The position numbers were made by a program, and so were the translations under genes. The notes under the pieces were generated by a model, which was not told where the DNA came from, did no database searches, and was given only the letters and a program-made list of their open reading frames with translations. From contig SMSO01000005.1 in assembly GCA_004764695.1 (NCBI GenBank), positions 1,011,501 to 1,075,500 on the forward strand: a DNA stretch of 64,000 bases. Reading direction: 5' to 3'. How positions within the stretch are numbered: the first letter of the stretch is position 1; each line of letters starts with the position of its first letter. This DNA is from Schizochytrium sp. TIO01 (taxonomy: Eukaryota; Sar; Bigyra; Thraustochytrida; Thraustochytriidae). This document shows, piece by piece, positions 6,542 to 39,175 of this stretch.

Positions 6542-7513
6542 GTAGGGTATACTATATATTAAACATCGTTTGATTAAAAAAGTATTTTTTATTTTTTTGA
6601 TTAAAATAATAATAATAAACACAGCAACCCATTTATATAAAAAGTGGGTTGTGCTGTTGCACTTCTAGAACATGAAACCGCCGTAGGAAAGCATTACGAG
6701 TTATGCAGGCCAGGCCATAATAAAAAGCGTTGGATAAAATCAGATAAAAGTTAATTATGATATATTTTGGTTGAGATTTTCAAATGAAATATACGCCTGC
6801 GCCTCCAAACTAGCGGAGAGCAGAGCTTGCAAACAGCCATCCTCTGTTTGGTCGCGCTCTCGAGGCGGCCCGCGCAGCAGAGCGGCATTGCCTGCAGTTG
6901 CGGAAGAACGCGGGAGAGAACGTCGAGTGTCTCTCACGTCTCGAGAGCGGTCCTTCGGCGCCAGCCGGGTTTGTGGTTGCTGGCATCAGCCTCATCGGCC
7001 GATTGGCCATCCATTAAGTCATCGCCGTATCCACTACGGTCGAGCCTGGCCTGGGCGTTGGTACTTCTCACAATTTACAGGAACCTAGTCAGACACCTAT
7101 TGTAGTCAAGGATTGTAGTGCAGGGCTCGCGAATAGCCTTAGTCAAACCGCGTATCCGCAGTCGATCCCTGAGCTGTCAATCAGCCATATATTTGATAGT
7201 GCAGATTTTTATTAAGGTTCAATAAGGGGCTCCGAGAGTCTCTTCCGCAAAAACGTAAAAGATTGGTCGAAGCTGTACGGGGGCCTGATCTTTGAGAATA
7301 TTCACTTTGGTGAGGGTACTTGTAAACCTGGGGGGGGACAAGCAACAAAGCAGAAAGCTGTGAGCACAGTGTCTCTGGGTTTGATATTGGTTGATTTGTT
7401 CAATAATTAGTTGTAAGAGCAACCAGTTTTGGACAAGGGGTCACTAGCGATACAGTTCAAGGTTTCAGTGAAGCCACTTCGTAGGCAATTTGAAAGGCAA
7501 GCGTAAGGCGAAG
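6542..7513. other. Spacer and 5' region of the SAP-domain gene, with a GC-rich patch
   Basis: AT-rich to about 6780, then a distinct GC-rich patch (about 6790-7050, with CGCGCTCTCG and GGCGGCCCGCGC-type strings) and mixed sequence up to the start codon. Short overlapping ORFs in the GC-rich patch exist in several frames and look incidental. I read the patch as promoter or leader DNA. Confidence 0.4.
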
Positions 7514-10500
7514 ATGGTAGCCAAAACTCCAGCCAAGATCAAGGCATCGACGCCAGCAGGAGAAGCGACGCCAGCGGCGATCCGCAGAACACCGAAGCCA
7601 AGTGTGACACCTCAACGCGTGCTTGAGAGCAGGCAGCAGTACAATGATCAGCGAATTGCGGAAATGACTGTGAAGGCTCTTCAAGACGCTCTACGAACTC
7701 TTGGCGCAGCAGTATCTGGCCGTAAAGCTGATTTGCAAGAGCGCCTACTGGACACCCTCGAGAGTCGCCCAGGGAGCCTTGCAGAAGGCAATACTTATCC
7801 AATGTCCATGAGCACACCTGGGGCTAGCCATAGTCTCAGTGCAGCTGTGCATAATGCTACGCCGATGCCGCTCTCCGGAATGCCCCCAGTACATACAGCA
7901 ACGCCTGTGGCAATGTCCAACCACGTGGCGACACCCCGGAGAGTACCGTCCAGCAGATCTTCCGTATCGTCGCGGTCTTCAACAGGATCAAGAGCAAGCA
8001 AGGTGATCCTACCTCCGCCCATTGCTGGTGCTGTTGACACAGTGTTTCGTGAGGAGGATGGTAGCTTTAGTTGGCGTGGTGTTGACATCAGAAAGTTCAA
8101 GGTTATTGAGCTCAAAGAAGCTCTTCGCGCATTGGGTCTAGATCACGGCGGCCTCCGTCTTAAAGCAGATCTTGTTGAAAAGCTTGAAGAAAGCGCTGTT
8201 CCACGTATGCTTAATCTTGGACCTCAAGCAATCCCTGCTACCCCGACACCTTCAGAGATGGAAGATGAGGCCGGCGCGGATATCCACAGCGACGAAGAGG
8301 ACGGTGAGCCCGAGGCGCAAAGCGACAACAAACGTTTGGGCGAAAGGGGCCAAGACGGACCTGTCAATGAACCTAGATTACAGGTTAACGAGAAAGCGCC
8401 CACCCCATTCAAACCACCAGCTCCGCGTCGAACAGGTCCCGGTTCGAGGGTAAAATCTGCAAACAAGGTGAAGCCTCAAGAAGCTGGACTTGATGAAAGT
8501 GTTCCCTCGGCAGCAACCTCATCTGAAACTGCTATTGATGGGCCCGTTCCAGTTTCTAGTGTAGTTACTCCTGGAACGCGCAAAACAGGACCACGGAGGC
8601 GATCACTAAACAATGAGGATTCTACTGAATCTTCACTTAAAGCTGCAGAAACAGGCAGTGTGTCAGACGACGAAGTCGAGAGCGAAGAAGAACAAGAAGA
8701 AGTAGAGGACTCAGGAGAAGAAGAAAGTGTCCACGAGAATAGTGACAAAGAAATTGACAATTCAGAGGAGGATGAGGTTCAACTAAAAGTAGCTGCTGAA
8801 TCTGATGAACAGTCAAAATCACCAATGTCGTCACGACCTGAATCGCCACTTGCGGCAGGATCTCCATCGCAAGAGGAGTATACCAGCTCGCCTGCACTTC
8901 CTGAGGCCAAAGAAATTAAGAACAATGAGGATGACCTTGAAGTGTCACCCCATATTGTCAATGACGTCACACCTCGAGCACTTCAACGGAAAGATTCCGA
9001 GAGTGTGGTGCGTAAGACAGGGCGTCGTACCGGCCCACGTTCCGCCAAGAAGTTTCAAGCTGGTATGAACTCACCTGAATCACTTGAAGAGTTGAGTAGC
9101 TCAGAGTCGTCTTCCGAAAGCGAGAATTCCTCCGAAGAGCATGAAGAGCTCTTGGCTGCGTCTGATGTTGATGATGTTGATGTCCATGATGTTAATGCTG
9201 ATAATATTGTAGAAGTCAACGAAACAGAGGAACAAGAAAAAGACGATGGAGAAGAGCAAGAAGTGGAGGAAGATGCAGGTCAAAAGCAGAAGGAAAAGGA
9301 GGACGTAGACCAAGGGCAAGTTGTAGAAGAAGACGAGGGAGAGGAAGTAGAAGAAGACGAGGAGGAACGAAAGGAAGAACATGTCGAGGAAGAAGAGGAG
9401 GAACATGAAGAAGAAGAAGAAGAAGAAGAAGAAGAAGAAGAAGAAGAGGAAGAACATGTCGAGGAAGAGAAGCCCCAACCTGCTGTGGCTATTCCTGCTA
9501 ACCTCTTCTCTGCTCTTGAACTTCAGCATGTACCGGAACTTTTTGCTTCTGCCAAAAGTCTTGATCTTGACGTAAAATCTCATGATCACAAGCACACGCT
9601 TATAGAGATGCTTGCAACGCATCTCGTGCAGGAGATTGGTAAGATGACTGTTGCTGACATGAAAGTATACCTCCATCTCATCGGAGCGAAGATTTCTGGA
9701 CGCAAGAATGAACTTTCTGAACGCCTTACCACTTTTCTGAGTGGTGATATTCGAGGAACTACCCTGGGAGCTCACAGAAAGCAACATCACGAGCAAGCTA
9801 TTGCATCGCCACGAAAACAACGCTCACAATCTTCATCCTCATCTTCACCCTCTGCAAAAAAACATGAGCACGTTTCTGGTCCAGAGGATATGGACGTTGA
9901 TTCGGATCATGACGAAGAAGATGTCGGCAACGATGAGGATGAGAACAAGAATAATGATAATAAGGACAAAACCAACGGACAGATGGAAGGTGATGATGAC
10001 CATGTCAACGTTGATGAATCTAACATGATTCATGATAATAATGATGAGGTCTTGAGTGGGGATGAGGCGGACCAGGCTCATGCCGCTGATGAGCAAAGTG
10101 ATCCTAGTGTACACGAGGAAAAAGAAATTGAGCAAAGTGTTTCAGAAAGTGAAAATGCAGATGAATTAGATGATGATGCTGCCCAAAATGTGATACGGGA
10201 CGAAGAAAATGTTATCATCGAAACTCTTTCCGTACAAGTAGACACTACTACACAGGAGTTACCGGAAAGCTCTTTGCCCAGCTCGCAGTGGACGCAAGCT
10301 GGCGTAAATGAGTCGGTATCCGAAGAGCGTGCACCTGTCGCAGTTGCCATTGCAGTTGATGAATCTAATGTGAATGATCAGCTACCGTCAACAATCTCCG
10401 GTGGTGTTCCCGCCGGAGAAGAGTCTCCAAGCCTCGTAGAGTCTGCGGCTTCTGCTATTCCGGCCCATCTACGCCCGCCGGGTTCAAAAACTGACAAAGC

Positions 10501-12094
10501 TCTCGAATCAGCATCTACCCCACCTCGTCAACACAACAAAAACGAAGCAGAGAACTCAGTAGAAACATTCTTTACTCCTGAAGAGGGTGAACATGGTGTG
10601 GGGTCAAACAGTGGTGAAGAGCTTCTTAGCGAGAAACCTCCAGCTGAGATTATCCCCCCCACTCCAGCACCGACAGGGCATGCCCTTTCGGGTAATTGGA
10701 GTGATGCTGCCGTGCCTGGATCTCCAGAAAACTCTGCTGAAATTCGGGCTGCTGCTGTGGACCCTGAGAAGGATAAAGAAGTTATTGTCCCAGAGACTCC
10801 GGCTCGTCCTAAGTCATCCGACCCTGGTAAGGAGATCGAAAGGTTGATGGACGAATTACAAGAAGATGGAATTACTGCAGACGACTTCAAGAAGTTTCGC
10901 GGTCTATTATCCAAGCTTGTTGGCGGTGAATCAAAGTCGAGCGGTAAAAAACGCAAGTCCAAGAGTGGGAAAAAGTCGAGCAAGAAGAAGAAGAAGCTAT
11001 CTGCTTCTTCTAAAAAGCGAGGCAAGCGGACACCGAAGGAAGCTAGACTAGATGACGATGATGAGGAGGCAGAAGAGGAAGAAGAGCCCATTCTCGGCAA
11101 CGAGGATGCTGCTGGCGCTCGCAAATCCAAAAAGAAGGAAAAGTCCAAAAAGAAGGAGAAGTCTGCAAAGAAATCGAGCAAGAAGAAAAAACGGAAGAAG
11201 GATATCTTCGCAATTGATTCCGGTGATGACGCTGTGATTGGTATTGGATCTCAAAGTGCAACGGCTCGAAAGCTGGGTCGGTCTCATGTGAAAGATTCTG
11301 TGCGACTAGTTGACGACTCCTTGAACTCTTTGACATCCCCTGCTATTAGGGCCACTCCCTATGCATCAATGCGCGGTTACGTAGACAAGAATGACTCGAT
11401 CTTTCCGGATAAGCCTAAATGGCGGGAGTCTCTTCTTTCGAACCAGAGCTTTGAGCAACAGTCGCTGCACGATTCTAATGGCTTTATTAATGCTTCACCA
11501 TTCACAAGCACGCCTAGAACCCAGTTCGGTGGTCCTCGTACTGTAGTTGGACAAACCGGTTATTCCACGTCCTCTCGCTCGCGTGCTACGCCACTCTTTC
11601 CCCGTTTCGAAAACGCTACATCGATTACAAGTCCAGCTGCGAGCAGTTCGTATCGGCAGCGAGGGGGCTTCTATGAGTCTGCAAAGCACGATCCCAGTGT
11701 TGTGGCACAAAGAGTTTTGAAGTCTATTAACCAAGAGTCGAAGGCGCTGTCGCGTGATGCTCTTAGCCACCACAGTCAGTTTGCCGCACCCAAGGCCCCC
11801 ATTCCGACAGTTGCAGTAAATGCAACTTCGTCACAACCTCTTTCCAAGCCGATTTCATCAAGCAAAACAGTTCAATCAAGCTCACGTCTTCCATCTTCAG
11901 ACTCCAATTTTGCAATACCTGACACCCCACCTGTGAAGCATCTGACAGTCAAAAGGGTAGGATCTGCTGTAAAGCCTACATTTCAATTTTCCCCTGCACG
12001 CTCGGACCGCTCACCAGATGAATCCAACCTTAGCATCGATCCCGTCCGTGATGAGGCGCTCGAAAATAGCTTTCAATTCCCAAGCCTTGAGTAA
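7514..12094 (+). CDS. Large acidic SAP-domain protein with Nup153/Nup1-like C-terminal motifs
   Basis: The frame opens at a TTG (7490); the first ATG, in good context (gaagATGG), is 7514, giving 1526 residues. Three SAP-type helix-extended-loop-helix motifs are visible: residues about 51-82 (MTVKALQDALRTLGAAVSG), about 193-228 (VIELKEALRALGLDHGG) and about 711-742 (MTVADMKVYLHLIGAKISG). A degenerate fourth may precede the last (LELQHVPELFASAKSLDLD). SAP motifs usually bind AT-rich or scaffold DNA. The rest is disordered: Glu/Asp-rich blocks including an almost pure Glu tract (about 9405-9456), then Lys/Ser-rich basic runs (KSKKKEKSKKKEKS). The C-terminal 230 residues change character and contain SPFTSTPRTQFGG, an AQRVLKSINQESKAL helix and two FxF motifs (TFQFSP, SFQFPS), in the order seen in Nup153/Nup1-type basket nucleoporins. 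A nuclear, chromatin-contacting role is inferred; the nucleoporin link is tentative. No intron is apparent. Confidence 0.85.
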   Translation: MVAKTPAKIKASTPAGEATPAAIRRTPKPSVTPQRVLESRQQYNDQRIAEMTVKALQDALRTLGAAVSGRKADLQERLLDTLESRPGSLAEGNTYPMSMSTPGASHSLSAAVHNATPMPLSGMPPVHTATPVAMSNHVATPRRVPSSRSSVSSRSSTGSRASKVILPPPIAGAVDTVFREEDGSFSWRGVDIRKFKVIELKEALRALGLDHGGLRLKADLVEKLEESAVPRMLNLGPQAIPATPTPSEMEDEAGADIHSDEEDGEPEAQSDNKRLGERGQDGPVNEPRLQVNEKAPTPFKPPAPRRTGPGSRVKSANKVKPQEAGLDESVPSAATSSETAIDGPVPVSSVVTPGTRKTGPRRRSLNNEDSTESSLKAAETGSVSDDEVESEEEQEEVEDSGEEESVHENSDKEIDNSEEDEVQLKVAAESDEQSKSPMSSRPESPLAAGSPSQEEYTSSPALPEAKEIKNNEDDLEVSPHIVNDVTPRALQRKDSESVVRKTGRRTGPRSAKKFQAGMNSPESLEELSSSESSSESENSSEEHEELLAASDVDDVDVHDVNADNIVEVNETEEQEKDDGEEQEVEEDAGQKQKEKEDVDQGQVVEEDEGEEVEEDEEERKEEHVEEEEEEHEEEEEEEEEEEEEEEEHVEEEKPQPAVAIPANLFSALELQHVPELFASAKSLDLDVKSHDHKHTLIEMLATHLVQEIGKMTVADMKVYLHLIGAKISGRKNELSERLTTFLSGDIRGTTLGAHRKQHHEQAIASPRKQRSQSSSSSSPSAKKHEHVSGPEDMDVDSDHDEEDVGNDEDENKNNDNKDKTNGQMEGDDDHVNVDESNMIHDNNDEVLSGDEADQAHAADEQSDPSVHEEKEIEQSVSESENADELDDDAAQNVIRDEENVIIETLSVQVDTTTQELPESSLPSSQWTQAGVNESVSEERAPVAVAIAVDESNVNDQLPSTISGGVPAGEESPSLVESAASAIPAHLRPPGSKTDKALESASTPPRQHNKNEAENSVETFFTPEEGEHGVGSNSGEELLSEKPPAEIIPPTPAPTGHALSGNWSDAAVPGSPENSAEIRAAAVDPEKDKEVIVPETPARPKSSDPGKEIERLMDELQEDGITADDFKKFRGLLSKLVGGESKSSGKKRKSKSGKKSSKKKKKLSASSKKRGKRTPKEARLDDDDEEAEEEEEPILGNEDAAGARKSKKKEKSKKKEKSAKKSSKKKKRKKDIFAIDSGDDAVIGIGSQSATARKLGRSHVKDSVRLVDDSLNSLTSPAIRATPYASMRGYVDKNDSIFPDKPKWRESLLSNQSFEQQSLHDSNGFINASPFTSTPRTQFGGPRTVVGQTGYSTSSRSRATPLFPRFENATSITSPAASSSYRQRGGFYESAKHDPSVVAQRVLKSINQESKALSRDALSHHSQFAAPKAPIPTVAVNATSSQPLSKPISSSKTVQSSSRLPSSDSNFAIPDTPPVKHLTVKRVGSAVKPTFQFSPARSDRSPDESNLSIDPVRDEALENSFQFPSLE
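9405..9456 (+). repeat. In-frame GAA/GAG tract coding polyglutamate
   Basis: A trinucleotide run (GAA with some GAG) within the SAP-protein gene encodes an almost uninterrupted Glu stretch. Its mirror on the minus strand gives a false poly-Phe ORF. Confidence 0.9.
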
Positions 12095-18657: not shown

Positions 18658-20778
18658 ATGGGAGGATATCTTGTAGCAGACAAAGCTGATTTCGAGGAGA
18701 AGACCGATTGTGCGCGACGCAAAATGTCGGGAGATGGGGAGGATATGGCTCCCGTGCGGCGCATTGCTCGCACGGAGCATTTGAATGCGTTTCTAACATC
18801 ATCTTCGTACGACCGTCTGGTGAACTTTCTGCTGGAGATGAATCATGCGGCCCTCGGTGGCAAACCCTCGAGTCCGAGCAATTTTGAAGGTGCCAGCGAA
18901 GCGGTTCTCGCAATGATCGAGATTCTCGAGAAAGCTGAACAGCTTTTGGAGGAATTCCCCCCAATGCAACAGAACGCACGTTTCGGAAATGCTTCATTTC
19001 GAGATTATATGGAGGCTATTCGGGAACGCAGCGAAGAAGATATGGCCTCGCTCAGTCAAGAACACGCCAAAGAGCTCGCAGGATATTGGTGTGCGAGCTT
19101 CGGCAATAGCCGCCGCCTAGACTTTGGTACAGGCCACGAGGCAAGCTTCCTCGTATGGATGTTCGCATGTCGTGAGCTTGAAATTACCGATGACCTGGAA
19201 GGTCTGGTGCTCCACGTGTTCCCTAGATATCTCGAACTGGTGTACTCTGTACAATCTCTCTACAGGCTGGAGCCGGCTGGGTCACACGGGGTCTGGTCTC
19301 TTGATGATTATCACATCCTTCCATTCGTTTTTGGATCTGCTCAACTTTGTTCTGCAGAAGACGGATCTCAAGGAAGTTTACTAGGCACTCGGCCCAAAAC
19401 TGTACGCGATCGAATGATGGTTGACGATCTGTCTCCGGTTAGTATGTACATGAGAGCGATCAAACGCATCAACGAGCTCAAGTCCGGCCCTTTCGAGGAG
19501 CATTCGCCGCTCTTGAACGATCTTGCGAATATTCCCTCCTGGAAAAAGGTCAACAGTGGTTTATTGGAAATGTTTAAAGGGGAGGTTCTTGGCAAATTTC
19601 CAGTCGCACAGCATTTTCTTTTCGGACCTACTTTCCCATGCACATGGGAAGTTAGCTCAGGCGACATCTCTATTCTAGAGAGCGATCAATCTGTAAGTAG
19701 CTCTCATGCAGGGAGCAGTAGTGGAGCTGGGGCGCCTTCTTCAGGTTCTGGCATCCCGAGCCCATTCGATGTGGCTCGACTTCGAACTCCAGCTGACGGA
19801 GATGCTCTGACGAAATATTTTGGAATTTCTCGACGGCCTACACACGGTGCTATTCGACCAGGCGGTTCTGGTGCATCCATGCCGCAGGGCGAAACCTGCA
19901 TGATGCCGAAGGATCTGAAAATTGCCGAGGAAACTGCAGCAGTGCCGCATACTTTACTTGACGGCGATCGCGGGGTTGAGGTGAAGGGGTTTCGCATCGA
20001 AACAAACAAGGGTCGTATATCTGGCGAAGCAGAGCTGGAAAATGTGAGAGACCAGCATACGTTTGAGGGTCACTGCTTGGATTTCCCTCTCCCTGAGATG
20101 CTTTTTGGGTTTAATAAAGTACAATTTACGCATCTTGACAGCGGAATAACACTTGATTTCAATGCTTCTGATGCTTTGTGCGGCTGTAAGATCGTACGCA
20201 ATGAGGAAGGTGAACCCGATCGCACGGTGTTCAAGCTGCCGAACTCTGCCCATTGGGAGAACAGGCAGACCTTGAACGGTGAAACCATTAAGTCGTGGCG
20301 AGATGATTTTGACTGGACTTTCTCTACACGCTATAGGGGTTCTTTGTCTCGTGATGGAGAGCCGATTCCAATGCCCACTGAGGTTTGTGATGAAAAAATC
20401 GACTACCAGCTTCTGCGCAAGCGCGAGCCATTTCTGTATTTTGACACTGTTCCTCTTTATGAAGATGATCTTTTCGACAATGGCGAAAGCAAGCTTACCG
20501 TACGCTTGCGTGTAATGACGTCATGCTTCTTTGCACTCTCTCGCCTTTGGCTTCGTGTTGATAACACCTTTGTGCGCTGCTTTGATACGCGTGTTTTCCA
20601 CAAATTTGACACCGACTATATTTTGGTGGAGCACACTCGTAAAGAAATGAGTGCCAAGGAGCTCCAGGATAAGGGCTTTGGTGATATGCGCATCATGATG
20701 AACGAGGAGCGGGTTGAAAAACTCTTGAAGGAAATTTCTTGCGAAACGGTGAAGATCCCTCTTACGTCTTCATCTTAG
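18658..20778 (+). CDS. PTPA-TIP41 fusion: two PP2A-family phosphatase regulators in one polypeptide
   Basis: One uninterrupted 706-residue frame. Residues about 38-330 are PTPA (PP2A phosphatase activator, Rrd1/Ypa1 family), a prolyl-isomerase-like chaperone that activates the PP2A catalytic subunit. Hallmarks are SFGNSRRLDFGTGHEASFL, EPAGSHGVWSLDDYHILPF, VFGSAQL and a KFPVAQHFLFG helix. A Ser/Gly/Pro linker spans about 345-430. Residues about 443-690 are TIP41 (TIPRL family), which binds catalytic subunits of PP2A, PP4 and PP6: LPEMLFGFNKVQFTHLDSG, FNASDAL, DWTFSTRYRG, VPLYEDDLFDNGESKLTVR, RVMTSCFF and RVDNTFVRCFDTR. Both domains look complete with conserved cores. Start: ATG 18658; ATG 18724 (MSGDGEDMAPVRR) is equally well placed and would still keep the whole PTPA domain. 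In animals, yeasts and plants these are separate genes. Likely cytosolic/nuclear. Confidence 0.95.
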   Translation: MGGYLVADKADFEEKTDCARRKMSGDGEDMAPVRRIARTEHLNAFLTSSSYDRLVNFLLEMNHAALGGKPSSPSNFEGASEAVLAMIEILEKAEQLLEEFPPMQQNARFGNASFRDYMEAIRERSEEDMASLSQEHAKELAGYWCASFGNSRRLDFGTGHEASFLVWMFACRELEITDDLEGLVLHVFPRYLELVYSVQSLYRLEPAGSHGVWSLDDYHILPFVFGSAQLCSAEDGSQGSLLGTRPKTVRDRMMVDDLSPVSMYMRAIKRINELKSGPFEEHSPLLNDLANIPSWKKVNSGLLEMFKGEVLGKFPVAQHFLFGPTFPCTWEVSSGDISILESDQSVSSSHAGSSSGAGAPSSGSGIPSPFDVARLRTPADGDALTKYFGISRRPTHGAIRPGGSGASMPQGETCMMPKDLKIAEETAAVPHTLLDGDRGVEVKGFRIETNKGRISGEAELENVRDQHTFEGHCLDFPLPEMLFGFNKVQFTHLDSGITLDFNASDALCGCKIVRNEEGEPDRTVFKLPNSAHWENRQTLNGETIKSWRDDFDWTFSTRYRGSLSRDGEPIPMPTEVCDEKIDYQLLRKREPFLYFDTVPLYEDDLFDNGESKLTVRLRVMTSCFFALSRLWLRVDNTFVRCFDTRVFHKFDTDYILVEHTRKEMSAKELQDKGFGDMRIMMNEERVEKLLKEISCETVKIPLTSSS

Positions 20779-35311: not shown

Positions 35312-36256
35312 CGATCTCCGCCGCCGCAGAAGCGAAAAGCCGAGCGAGGGTCCGCAGCTCAGAGCGCCCGCGACCGCGGCGCCGGCTCGCCTGCCGAGAG
35401 CAGCGAGAGCAGCGAGAGCAGCAGCAGGGTACCAGGGCCTCCCGGAGCAGGCACGCCGCGACGCAGAGCTTTGGCACGTGCCGCGACGGCAGCGCTTGCC
35501 TCCTGTCGCTTCCTTTGCCTCGTTGTTTTTTACCTGCTTAGGTTGTGGCCGTTCTTTCATTGCGAAGGACCGTTCCTTTATTTGGGGGTTTCGTACGTTG
35601 ATTGCTTTTTCTAGGCGTTCCATTTTGAGGAAGTCTTCTGTTTTCAGGTGCTTCGTGTGCGCGTGTCGCAGCTACGGGAGGAACGTGGGCAAGCTGGTAT
35701 AATAAGCGGTAGAAAGGAAGGAACGAAGGAAGGGACGAGACGTGGGCGAGGGCTGGAAGCAAGCCGCTTGCTTCTAGCGATAGCTCCCATTGCTGCTGAG
35801 AAATTGTGCAAGAGGCTTTTTGTTTTAGGTCGCACTTTTTTTCTTTTCTTTTCGTTTACTCTTTTTCCTTTTTAGTTTGTGTATCGCGTGTCCTTTTTAC
35901 TCTATTTCTTGGGTTCGTACTTCATTTCCTTTTTCGAACGAGGTGGTTGTGCACGTGCGTGGACGCTGCTCAGCAAGTACGGAGTTCTGACGGGTTGAGT
36001 CGTTTGTGCTTGCGTGAAGGAACAGAAGTAGTCCCCGTACATTATCTCATTTGTCCTTCTGCCTGTCTGCTTCCCTGATTTTTGTTCGGAGCAACAAGGG
36101 TTTCTGCAAGAGAGTTTCTTCGTTTGCATTTGTCTAGCAGAACCAAGCGGAGCTAATTTAATCTCACAACTGCTTTGGGCTTCGCTGTTGTATTAAGTCG
36201 CAGGGAATAAGTCTCGTTGGTGCGAGCAACCCGAAGACAAACTATCACACATAAAG

Positions 36257-39175
36257 ATGGGCTGCAGCTCAAGCTCTCAAAGGAGCGGTGTCTACGATCA
36301 TGCCATTCAAATGGACATGGACGAAGATCTCACGCTCCGCCAAGCACCTAACCGGAGTAGCGACGCCAGCGCCGCTTCATCGGCCTTAGACGGCACCGGA
36401 GGGGAGCTTGTACTTTCCAGTTCCAGTAGGCATGGCGAAGGTACTGGAATCAGTACGTCATACAGTGGCACACAACAAACACAGTCGGTTCGTGTGGTTC
36501 TTGATGACGCAGACCCAGGGCTAGATTTTGACTCAGATGAAATGCGAGAGGATGATGAAGACCTAGACTCGCCACCAAACCCAGTTGAAAACCACCAGCT
36601 TGTATCTCGCCATCATGGCCTTAAAAAGACCCGCAAGGCTGTCTTCCAACGAGGCTTTACAAAAGATAGATCGGGACCATCCAGGTCAAAGACGCCTAAA
36701 ACAGACGAACAAATTGCAACTATTAATCGCGCTCTCTCAAGGTGCTACCTCTTCAGTTACCTCGATGAAAAAGACAGGGACGAACTTATCGCATACATGT
36801 GGAAAGAAAAGGTGAAGGTGGGATCAACAATCGTCTCGGCTGGCAAAAAAAATGATAACTACTATGTCATTGAGGAGGGAACCTTTGAATTCTTGGGAAC
36901 CTCAGGGTCATCATCTTCTTCTAGTTCAACTGCTCCATCTACATCACCATCATCGTCTTCTTCGTCATTAACAGCCTGTGCGCTACGATCGGGTTCTGGG
37001 GAGGAGCCCTTCTTTGGTGAGAACGCTCTGCTCTTCCAGAACCGCGCACCAGAGTCAATTCGCTGTACCTCAACTTTTAATGAAGATGGATCTGGTGGGT
37101 CATCATCAAAGCATGCACGTCTTTGGACAATCGATCGGGCGACATTCAGGCAAGTCATTACCGAGCAACAACTCGCCAACCAGGAGGAGTTCCGTTCAGC
37201 ACTTGATAGTATTCCCTTACTCACAGAATACCTTACTCCAGAACAACGTGACCTCATTGTCGGTTCCATGCAAGTCCTCAATGTTCGTGCTGGCCAACGT
37301 ATTGTTCGGAAAGGCGATTACGGTGATGTCTGTTATTTTATTCGCTCAGGAACTGTTGAGTGTGCTAACATTGGTGGCCAAGGTTTGGGTAAAATTGAAC
37401 TTGGGCCTGGGCAGCACTTTGGAGAGCGTGCTCTTATTACAGATGAACCCCGTGCTGCAGATGTGACGACCTTGACCGATACTGTGCTTCTTGTAGTTGA
37501 CCGCCGTGCATTCAATGAACACCTTGGTCCCTTGCGATCAATCATGGACGAGACGATGAAGGGCCGTGTAGTAGAAGCTGTACCAGTTCTACAACAACTT
37601 CCCAAAGGTTTGCGGTCACGCATCATTTCCAAATTTGAAATATTGCAATTTGCTGACCAAGAAGTTATTGTCCATGAAGGCGATATTGGTGATCGCTTCT
37701 ATGTAGTTCGTTCTGGTACTGTCGAGGTGCTTTCGGCGGAACTTCAGGCCGCTGGATGCGGCGTTGACAGTCCCAGTGGATCAATGGTATCAGATGGCTC
37801 AAGCATCAGTGTATCCTCCCTCGGTATACACATTGCAACCCTGTACGAGGGCGACTGGTTTGGCGAGATGGCTCTTTTGAACAATGAACCTCGTTCAGCT
37901 TCTTGCGTTGCACAGGGCGATGTGGAATGCTTCGCTCTTTCATTCGAAGTATTCAAACTTATGCGCGGAAAATCTGATCTCCTCGTGTCTACATCTCAAC
38001 GCCGTTTTGAAGAGAACATGCGTAAACGGGCTAGTGTACACTCGATTGACACCTCAGGGCTTACGCTTCGGGACTTGCACCGGCGAAAAATTCTGGGTAA
38101 AGGTACATTTGGTACAGTATACCTTGCTGAAGCCTCCTCCCGCGCAACTGTGCAGGGGGTATGGGCTCTCAAAGTTATGAGCAAAGCTCACATTGTTGAC
38201 TGTGACCAAACTCGTAATGTTGCAAACGAGCGCAGTATACTTATGGAAATGAACCATCCGTTTGTGCTGAAGCTCATTACTACTTTCCAAGACCGCAACT
38301 CCTTGTACATGCTTCTCGAGTTTGTCCAAGGTGGAGAGCTCTTTAGCATTATGCAGGAACACTATCGCCTTCCGTTACCCCATGCGCAATTCTACGCGGC
38401 TTGTATTGTCGACGCGTTCCACTACATGCATGACCAGCATGTGATCTACCGTGACCTGAAACCAGAGAACATCCTAATTGATCGCGATGGTTTCGTCAAG
38501 GTTGCTGACTTTGGTTTTGCAAAGCGCCTAATGAGCGGGAAAACCTTTACGCTTTGTGGTACGCCTGAGTATCTTGCACCCGAAATTGTCCTTGGCAAGG
38601 GTCATGACAAGGGTGTTGATTGGTGGGCCGTTGGTGTTCTCATTTACGAGATTTGCTGTGGTATTTCCCCGTTTGCAGATGAGTATTCAGACGATCAGAT
38701 CACAGTGTGTAAGAACATTGTCAATAGTAAGCCCGATTTCAATCGTCTTGAGGCTTGCATCCGAGAGACGGAAATGAATCCTCCTTCAACTTTGACCGAG
38801 GCCCAACTCGAGTACACCTTCCATGTCCCACGACGGGTTACGGAGCGTCGTGGATCATCGCATGTGGCACTTGCTGCTACACCCCACCGCCCTTCGCTCA
38901 ATGTACGTCCTGTTGAGCACCTTGTTCGTAAACTGCTTTCAAAGTCTCCAAGCCAGCGACTGGGCTGCCTGCGCGATGGTGCTCTTGATGTAATGCGCCA
39001 TCCCTTCTTTGCTCTTGACCAGCAGGGCTGGGATGATTTGCGGGCTAAGGGATGTGCTGCTCCCTTTGTTCCTACCATTTCTTCCCCTACCGATACATCA
39101 GCGTTCGACGATTTTGAGCCCGACCCACCTCGCGAAGCCTATACCGGGTCAGATACTTGGTGCGAAGACTTTTGA
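36257..39175 (+). CDS. cGMP-dependent-type protein kinase (PKG, AGC family) with N-terminal acylation signal
   Basis: Single exon, 972 residues. The N-terminus MGCSSSSQ is a myristoylation signal (Gly2) with an adjacent palmitoylatable Cys3, so membrane attachment is expected. Three cyclic-nucleotide-binding domains follow: about 158-290 (degenerate cassette FGENALLFQNRAPES and a Ser-rich insertion), about 312-425 (FGERALITDEPRAADV) and about 440-575 (FGEMALLNNEPRSASC). Ser after the cassette Arg in the third is the cGMP-type choice, and Ala in the second is the cAMP-type choice. The kinase domain (about 600-880) has GKGTFG, Lys639 in WALKVM, YRDLKPEN with Asp733, DFG at 751-753 and CGTPEYLAPE, all intact. 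A roughly 50-residue insertion follows the PDFN motif before the end of the C-lobe. The AGC tail includes FDDF and ends WCEDF. Fused regulatory and catalytic parts make it PKG-like rather than PKA-like. Which nucleotide activates it is not settled by sequence. Confidence 0.95.
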   Translation: MGCSSSSQRSGVYDHAIQMDMDEDLTLRQAPNRSSDASAASSALDGTGGELVLSSSSRHGEGTGISTSYSGTQQTQSVRVVLDDADPGLDFDSDEMREDDEDLDSPPNPVENHQLVSRHHGLKKTRKAVFQRGFTKDRSGPSRSKTPKTDEQIATINRALSRCYLFSYLDEKDRDELIAYMWKEKVKVGSTIVSAGKKNDNYYVIEEGTFEFLGTSGSSSSSSSTAPSTSPSSSSSSLTACALRSGSGEEPFFGENALLFQNRAPESIRCTSTFNEDGSGGSSSKHARLWTIDRATFRQVITEQQLANQEEFRSALDSIPLLTEYLTPEQRDLIVGSMQVLNVRAGQRIVRKGDYGDVCYFIRSGTVECANIGGQGLGKIELGPGQHFGERALITDEPRAADVTTLTDTVLLVVDRRAFNEHLGPLRSIMDETMKGRVVEAVPVLQQLPKGLRSRIISKFEILQFADQEVIVHEGDIGDRFYVVRSGTVEVLSAELQAAGCGVDSPSGSMVSDGSSISVSSLGIHIATLYEGDWFGEMALLNNEPRSASCVAQGDVECFALSFEVFKLMRGKSDLLVSTSQRRFEENMRKRASVHSIDTSGLTLRDLHRRKILGKGTFGTVYLAEASSRATVQGVWALKVMSKAHIVDCDQTRNVANERSILMEMNHPFVLKLITTFQDRNSLYMLLEFVQGGELFSIMQEHYRLPLPHAQFYAACIVDAFHYMHDQHVIYRDLKPENILIDRDGFVKVADFGFAKRLMSGKTFTLCGTPEYLAPEIVLGKGHDKGVDWWAVGVLIYEICCGISPFADEYSDDQITVCKNIVNSKPDFNRLEACIRETEMNPPSTLTEAQLEYTFHVPRRVTERRGSSHVALAATPHRPSLNVRPVEHLVRKLLSKSPSQRLGCLRDGALDVMRHPFFALDQQGWDDLRAKGCAAPFVPTISSPTDTSAFDDFEPDPPREAYTGSDTWCEDF

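What the first reader, a model, noticed from the sequence alone, without database searches (positions are those of the whole stretch)
18658..20778. Two PP2A-family regulators, PTPA and TIP41, fused in one gene
One continuous frame encodes a complete PTPA domain (EPAGSHGVWSLDDYHILPF, KFPVAQHFLFG), a Ser/Gly linker, and a complete TIP41 domain (LPEMLFGFNKVQF, VPLYEDDLFDNGES). In model eukaryotes these are separate proteins that both act on PP2A-type catalytic subunits (PTPA as activator/metal-loading chaperone; TIP41/TIPRL as binder of PP2A, PP4 and PP6). A fusion is direct evidence that the two work on the same phosphatase molecule, and it fixes their 1:1 stoichiometry. I am not aware of this fusion being described.
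Basis: partly seen in the sequence, partly recalled or inferred. Interest (0 to 1): 0.85.

Follow-up and report, generated by a model that had tools for sequence, protein, structure and literature searches.

The report
PTPA-TIP41 fusion: PP2A activator plus inactivator
A single gene of a eukaryotic microbe joins, in one protein, the chaperone that switches the phosphatase PP2A on and a factor that switches it off; because the mammalian versions compete for the same spot on PP2A, the fusion looks like a two-way switch rather than a simple complex.

Summary
One open frame, 18658-20778 (+), 706 aa, carries a full-length PTPA domain (aa 32-328, E 6e-95) and a near full-length TIP41 domain (aa 481-669, E 9e-48). 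They are joined by 129 codons rich in Ser/Gly/Ala/Pro that score as coding in this frame. In the 64-Mb assembly each domain was found once, in this gene, so the fusion is apparently the only PTPA and only TIP41. Key contact residues are mostly kept. alpha4, LCM-family proteins, B56 and at least five PP2A-type catalytic subunits are present.

Mammalian TIPRL and PTPA overlap on PP2Ac and compete (PMC5741625), so the two domains should not hold one catalytic subunit together. The fusion joins an activator and an inactivator with mutually exclusive binding: best read as a tethered two-state switch that recycles PP2A. Eight paper searches listed nothing on it, but no eukaryotic protein collection could be searched, so spread and prior annotation are unknown. 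No RNA was available; a GTAAGT in the linker leaves alternative splicing open. 'Stramenopile' was not confirmed.

The parts
18658..20778 (+). PTPA-TIP41 fusion gene: one open frame, 706 aa plus stop
   Evidence: single match in own assembly
18658..18750 (+). N-terminal extension before PTPA (aa 1-31)
   Evidence: domain limits
18751..19641 (+). PTPA domain (aa 32-328); human V209, E270, G290, M294, K302 identical, V281 is I
   Evidence: PF03095 E 6e-95, 1-293/293; residue map from the alignment to 2hv6_A, chain numbering taken as human numbering
19642..20028 (+). linker, 129 aa (aa 329-457), 44% S+G+P+A, in-frame and coding-like
19693..19744 (+). GTAAGT donor-like site with its best-looking acceptor (CTTCTTCAG); 52 nt, would shift the frame if spliced and end the protein at 366 aa after PTPA; GC about 0.57, unlike the two alpha4 introns (0.34, 0.36); probably chance
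20029..20775 (+). TIP41/TIPRL region (aa 458-706; Pfam aa 481-669); tail-groove residues R144, R173, R184, R200, L141, F180 identical, K171 is R, T138 is Y, I147 is F
   Evidence: PF04176 E 9e-48; alignment to 5d9g_A; residue map

Best explanation
The gene makes a single bifunctional regulator of PP2A-type phosphatases. The PTPA half uses ATP to load catalytic metal and activate the catalytic subunit. The TIP41 half grips the subunit's C-terminal tail and active-site loops and, with alpha4, inactivates and strips it. Because the two halves are expected to compete for one face of the catalytic subunit, the tethered protein would work as a two-state switch: whichever half lets go is replaced at once by its neighbour, with ATP/Mg and tail methylation biasing the outcome. 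This couples the first and last steps of the PP2A recycling loop and fixes the ratio of activator to inactivator. Shown: the fused frame, the two domains, mostly kept contact residues, no other copy found, presence of the partners. Inferred: each half's activity, the competition in this organism, and the switch.
For: Both domains in one frame. Linker coding in frame. Only PTPA and only TIP41 found in the assembly. PTPA contact residues 5 of 6 identical (residues named in PMC3958860). TIPRL groove residues 6 of 9 identical and 1 conservative (residues named in PMC5741625). TIPRL and PTPA overlap and compete on PP2Ac; TIPRL affinity about 0.31 uM for unmethylated core enzyme, and methylation raises its IC50 about 30-fold. 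A simple polymer estimate puts the tethered concentration at 0.4-2.5 mM for linkers of 100-140 residues, far above that affinity. alpha4, LCM-family proteins and B56 are present; 5 of 5 catalytic subunits searched have PP2Ac as best PDB match.
Against: No RNA, protein or activity data. The competition was shown for mammalian proteins only. TIPRL groove positions T138 and I147 differ, and the closest PP2Ac gene here ends TPSFLL, not TPDYFL, and changes frame near its start, so the tail contact may differ. A fused gene can also arise and persist neutrally. Methylation preference of TIPRL is disputed: PMC4973239 quotes a report of preference for the methylated form, against PMC5741625. The LCM family is broad (it also matches 2 of 14 prokaryote controls), so it does not by itself prove an LCMT-1.
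Confidence: 0.5

Rival explanations
1. Bivalent scaffold: the two halves act on two different catalytic subunits at the same time, for example PTPA on PP2A and TIP41 on a PP4- or PP6-like enzyme, so the fusion coordinates several phosphatases.
For: At least five PP2A-type catalytic subunits with different tails: SPAYFL, TPSFLL, VDYFL, PTYFM, PDYFM. TIPRL is expected to bind PP4 and PP6 in a similar mode and is reported to suppress PP4 (PMC5741625 discussion). A linker of 129 aa allows two partners.
Against: Nothing shows division of labour between the halves; which of the five are PP4 or PP6 could not be told, since PP2Ac was the best match of all five and no PP4 or PP6 chain was among the 60 rows shown for each.
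Confidence: 0.2
2. Neutral or expression-level fusion: two neighbouring genes merged by loss of a stop and the halves work independently, the gain being at most co-expression.
For: The linker is rich in S, G, P and A (44%) and no added domain is found.
Against: The two partners are functionally linked and opposing, and both were found once only; a random merger would rarely join such a pair (inference; not computed).
Confidence: 0.22
3. The mature RNA or protein is split: alternative splicing at GTAAGT 19693, an internal start in the linker, or protease cleavage gives stand-alone PTPA and TIP41.
For: A perfect GTAAGT lies in the linker; with the acceptor at 19744 the product would be a 366-aa PTPA, and 13 of 23 acceptors examined would end the protein after PTPA. 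Met codons lie in the linker.
Against: The linker as a whole is coding-like; the candidate intron is short and GC about 0.57 against 0.34 and 0.36 in the two alpha4 introns, the only introns measured; one GTAAGT in 2.1 kb is near chance (about 0.5 expected at equal base frequencies, my arithmetic).
Confidence: 0.06
4. Assembly error joins two separate genes.
For: The assembly may hold small errors: a PP2Ac-like gene changes frame once near its start (by eye).
Against: Both domains and the 129-codon linker share one frame with coding bias; an error would have to remove a stop and leave a whole spacer looking coding. The gene lies about 1.03 Mb into a 1.9-Mb contig.
Confidence: 0.02

Closest known systems
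PTPA / yeast Rrd1 and Rrd2 (PF03095)
   Same: Full-length domain; human contact residues V209, E270, G290, M294, K302 kept
   Different: In the solved chains matched (303-325 aa) PTPA stands alone; here fused to TIP41, and V281 is I
TIP41 / TIPRL (PF04176)
   Same: Near full-length domain; R144, R173, R184, R200, L141, F180 kept
   Different: In the solved chains matched (240-251 aa) TIPRL stands alone; here C-terminal to PTPA; T138 is Y, I147 is F, K171 is R
alpha4/TIPRL decommissioning and PTPA activation loop of PP2A (PMC5741625)
   Same: Members found in this genome: alpha4, TIP41, PTPA, LCM family, B56, PP2A-type catalytic subunits; scaffold A subunit and PME-1 not searched
   Different: Activator and inactivator are separate proteins in that scheme and one chain here
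Bifunctional regulators with opposing activities such as PFK-2/FBPase-2 or isocitrate dehydrogenase kinase/phosphatase (recalled, no call)
   Same: Two opposing actions on one target system in one polypeptide
   Different: Those are enzymes; here two chaperone-type binders that compete for a phosphatase

Membership tests
PTPA (PF03095) | Match over the whole profile above the curated cut-off | tested here: met
   318.5 bits against cut-off 27, profile 1-293 of 293
PTPA (PF03095) | PP2A contact residues V209, E270, V281, G290, M294, K302 (human numbering, PMC3958860) | tested here: met
   5 of 6 identical, V281 is I
PTPA (PF03095) | ATP/Mg-dependent activation of PP2A | not testable with these tools
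   needs purified protein
TIP41 (PF04176) | Match over the whole profile above the curated cut-off | tested here: met
   162.5 bits against cut-off 25, profile 1-173 of 174
TIP41 (PF04176) | Tail-binding groove residues (R144, R173, R184, R200, K171, T138, L141, F180, I147; PMC5741625) | tested here: inconclusive
   6 of 9 identical, K171 to R, T138 to Y, I147 to F; R200, which contacts the terminal carboxylate, is kept
TIP41 (PF04176) | Inhibits PP2A-type catalytic subunits | not testable with these tools
   needs purified protein
Gene fusion (one polypeptide) | One open, coding-like frame through both domains and the linker | tested here: met
Gene fusion (one polypeptide) | One transcript across both domains | not testable with these tools
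   no RNA data

The most novel reading that the evidence does not exclude
The fusion is a paradoxical bifunctional regulator: activator and inactivator of PP2A with mutually exclusive binding on one chain, making a tethered switch whose set point depends on ATP/Mg and tail methylation and not on the relative abundance of two proteins, in an organism whose closest PP2Ac tail (TPSFLL) and TIP41 groove (T138Y, I147F) both differ from the mammalian ones, possibly together.
Probability: 0.3. Interest if true: 0.8.

Novelty: new variant of a known kind. Interest (0 to 1): 0.6.

Why it matters
PTPA and TIPRL are known as separate, competing factors at opposite ends of the PP2A cycle. A natural fusion, apparently the sole source of both in its genome, says that evolution tolerates or favours a fixed ratio and close coupling of the two. 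It gives a ready-made reagent to test whether PP2A activation and decommissioning form one hand-over cycle, and whether the competition seen with mammalian proteins matters in a cell.

Tried and rejected
Relatives: protein scans of viral contigs (1 pattern stretch, no relative) and of bacterial and archaeal genomes (14 stretches, no relative) found nothing, as expected for a eukaryotic gene. I know of no eukaryotic proteome collection in these tools, and the metagenome collection had no scans, so the spread of the fusion is untested.

PP2Ac tail pattern for TPDYFL plus stop: 0 matches. This fits the later finding that the closest PP2Ac gene ends TPSFLL.

In-frame intron idea: I first thought, and wrote in note 1, that the GTAAGT to CTTCTTCAG piece was 54 nt and in frame. 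Searches show that the GT-AG piece is 52 nt and that splicing it would break the fusion. I keep splicing as a low-probability rival.

Lineage: the rRNA search did not complete; two TPI loci show no fused GAPDH in the flanks held, so 'stramenopile' is neither shown nor excluded. Rfam on the window gave no match at the gathering threshold. The bacterial promoter/terminator scan is not relevant to a eukaryotic gene.

Structure prediction and fold search were not run: no homologues were held for an alignment, and I judged that a lone-sequence model would not settle the arrangement of the two domains.

Papers: section 7 and the discussion of PMC5741625 (passages); passages of PMC4973239, PMC3958860 and PMC2705460; only search listings for the others. 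PMC2705460 reports 273 oomycete multifunctional proteins; its supplementary list could not be opened (no look-ups allowed), so a prior listing there is not excluded. PMC3915903 is not held.

Full report
Observation. The frame at 18658-20778 (+) codes 706 aa from ATG to TAG without a break. Pfam finds PTPA at aa 32-328 over the whole profile (E 6e-95) and TIP41 at aa 481-669 over positions 1-173 of 174 (E 9e-48). Sequence search of the PDB returns 11 distinct sequences, 8 PTPA and 3 TIP41-like.

Is it one gene? The linker (aa 329-457, 19642-20028) has no stop in the gene's frame, 6 stops in each of the other two forward frames, and a codon score of +0.165 per codon, like PTPA (+0.124) and TIP41 (+0.142). 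The other two forward linker frames score -0.337 and -0.418, and all 21 frame scores from 7 overlapping windows of flanking intergenic DNA (the two flanks laid end to end) are negative (the codon model came from 6 of the 7 other scanned window ORFs with Pfam hits). One GTAAGT lies in the coding frame, in the linker (19693). Of 23 possible acceptors examined downstream, 13 shift the frame and end the protein after PTPA, and 10 are multiples of three (8 marked 'TIP41 kept'; the other two, 20067 and 20097, keep the frame to the normal C-terminus but cut the marker stretch). The best-looking acceptor (19744) would make a 52-nt intron, GC about 0.57 (measured on the 54 bases that include it), against 154 and 85 nt with GC 0.34 and 0.36 in the alpha4 gene, the only introns measured. 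I judge it a chance match, not excluded.

Sole copies. In the 64.06-Mb, 37-contig assembly, PF03095 gives 1 match, PF04176 gives 1 match and the whole protein gives 1 match, all here (the two family searches gave 0 of 14 in the prokaryote controls). The search ignores introns and reads exon by exon, so a gene in many very short exons could be missed; the assembly may be incomplete.

Fitness of the halves. PTPA: of six residues reported as contributing strongly to human PTPA binding of PP2A (PMC3958860), five are identical and V281 is I. TIP41: of nine tail-groove residues named in PMC5741625, six are identical including R200, K171 is R, T138 is Y and I147 is F.

Partners. alpha4/TAP42: three exon matches at one locus, which read as one continuous protein after two introns are removed. 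LCM family: three matches, but 2 of 14 prokaryote controls also match; L008 looks most like LCMT-1 by eye (recalled motif, not tested). B56: 7 matches, 6 over the cut-off. PF00149: 41 matches, 30 held as loci; I read the frames of 14 of these (L009-L021 and L024; for plus-strand, for minus-strand loci). I sent five, chosen by eye, to the PDB search; 5 of 5 have PP2Ac as best match, with tails SPAYFL (L010), TPSFLL (L011), VDYFL (L013), PTYFM (L014), PDYFM (L016). The count of five is a lower bound. L011 is by far the closest to PP2Ac (E 1.2e-160, open part only) yet lacks the DYFL tail and changes frame once near its start (by eye); whether that is a sequencing error is open. The scaffold A subunit and PME-1 were not searched.

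Mechanism. In the mammalian system PTPA loads metal with ATP and activates PP2Ac, while TIPRL distorts the active site, prefers the unmethylated tail and, with alpha4, dismantles holoenzymes. TIPRL and PTPA overlap near the active site, both contact the tail, and TIPRL competes with PTPA for the core enzyme (PMC5741625); PMC4973239 also says TIPRL would not bind simultaneously with PTPA, though the two papers differ on the methylation preference. So the fusion should not clamp one catalytic subunit with both halves. The likeliest reading is a tethered competition: a flexible linker of 100-140 residues gives an effective local concentration of about 0.4-2.5 mM (simple polymer formulae, point ends), against a TIPRL affinity near 0.3 uM, so hand-over would be fast and set by ATP/Mg, methylation and alpha4. 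A two-subunit scaffold and a neutral merger remain live rivals.

Literature. Eight searches of the held open-licence papers listed, of those found: 4 of 4, 13 of 13, 20 of 6,527, 20 of 30, 20 of 398, 20 of 61, 15 of 148, 15 of 34. By titles and abstract starts none is about a PTPA-TIP41 fusion; the complete list is (all held papers with 'PTPA', 'TIP41' and 'fusion'), and those four were not read. PMC2705460's supplementary list of oomycete multifunctional proteins could not be opened. The fusion may already sit unremarked in protein databases.

Verdict. Real in the assembly and apparently the sole source of both factors; a new variant (domain combination) of known families. The striking point is that the fused partners are antagonists that, in mammals, compete for one site.

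Noticed in passing
L011 1368-2280 (G000:C30:7042123-7045704): Closest PP2A catalytic subunit gene reads RRTPSFLL at its C-terminus in place of RRTPDYFL, and its reading frame changes once near codon 30; sequencing error, pseudogene or real change not resolved.
   Followed up: partly
L010, L011, L013, L014, L016: At least five PP2A-type catalytic subunits with different C-terminal tails (SPAYFL, TPSFLL, VDYFL, PTYFM, PDYFM); two end in Met rather than Leu, which matters for a leucine carboxyl methyltransferase.
   Followed up: partly
window 7472-12094 (+): 1540-aa open frame with three SAP-domain stretches.
   Followed up: no
window 36197-39175 (+): 992-aa frame with three cyclic-nucleotide-binding stretches and a protein kinase domain, like a cGMP-dependent kinase (likeness recalled).
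   Followed up: no
L047 and L048: Two triosephosphate isomerase genes without a fused GAPDH in the flanks held, which would be unexpected in a typical stramenopile (marker recalled).
   Followed up: partly
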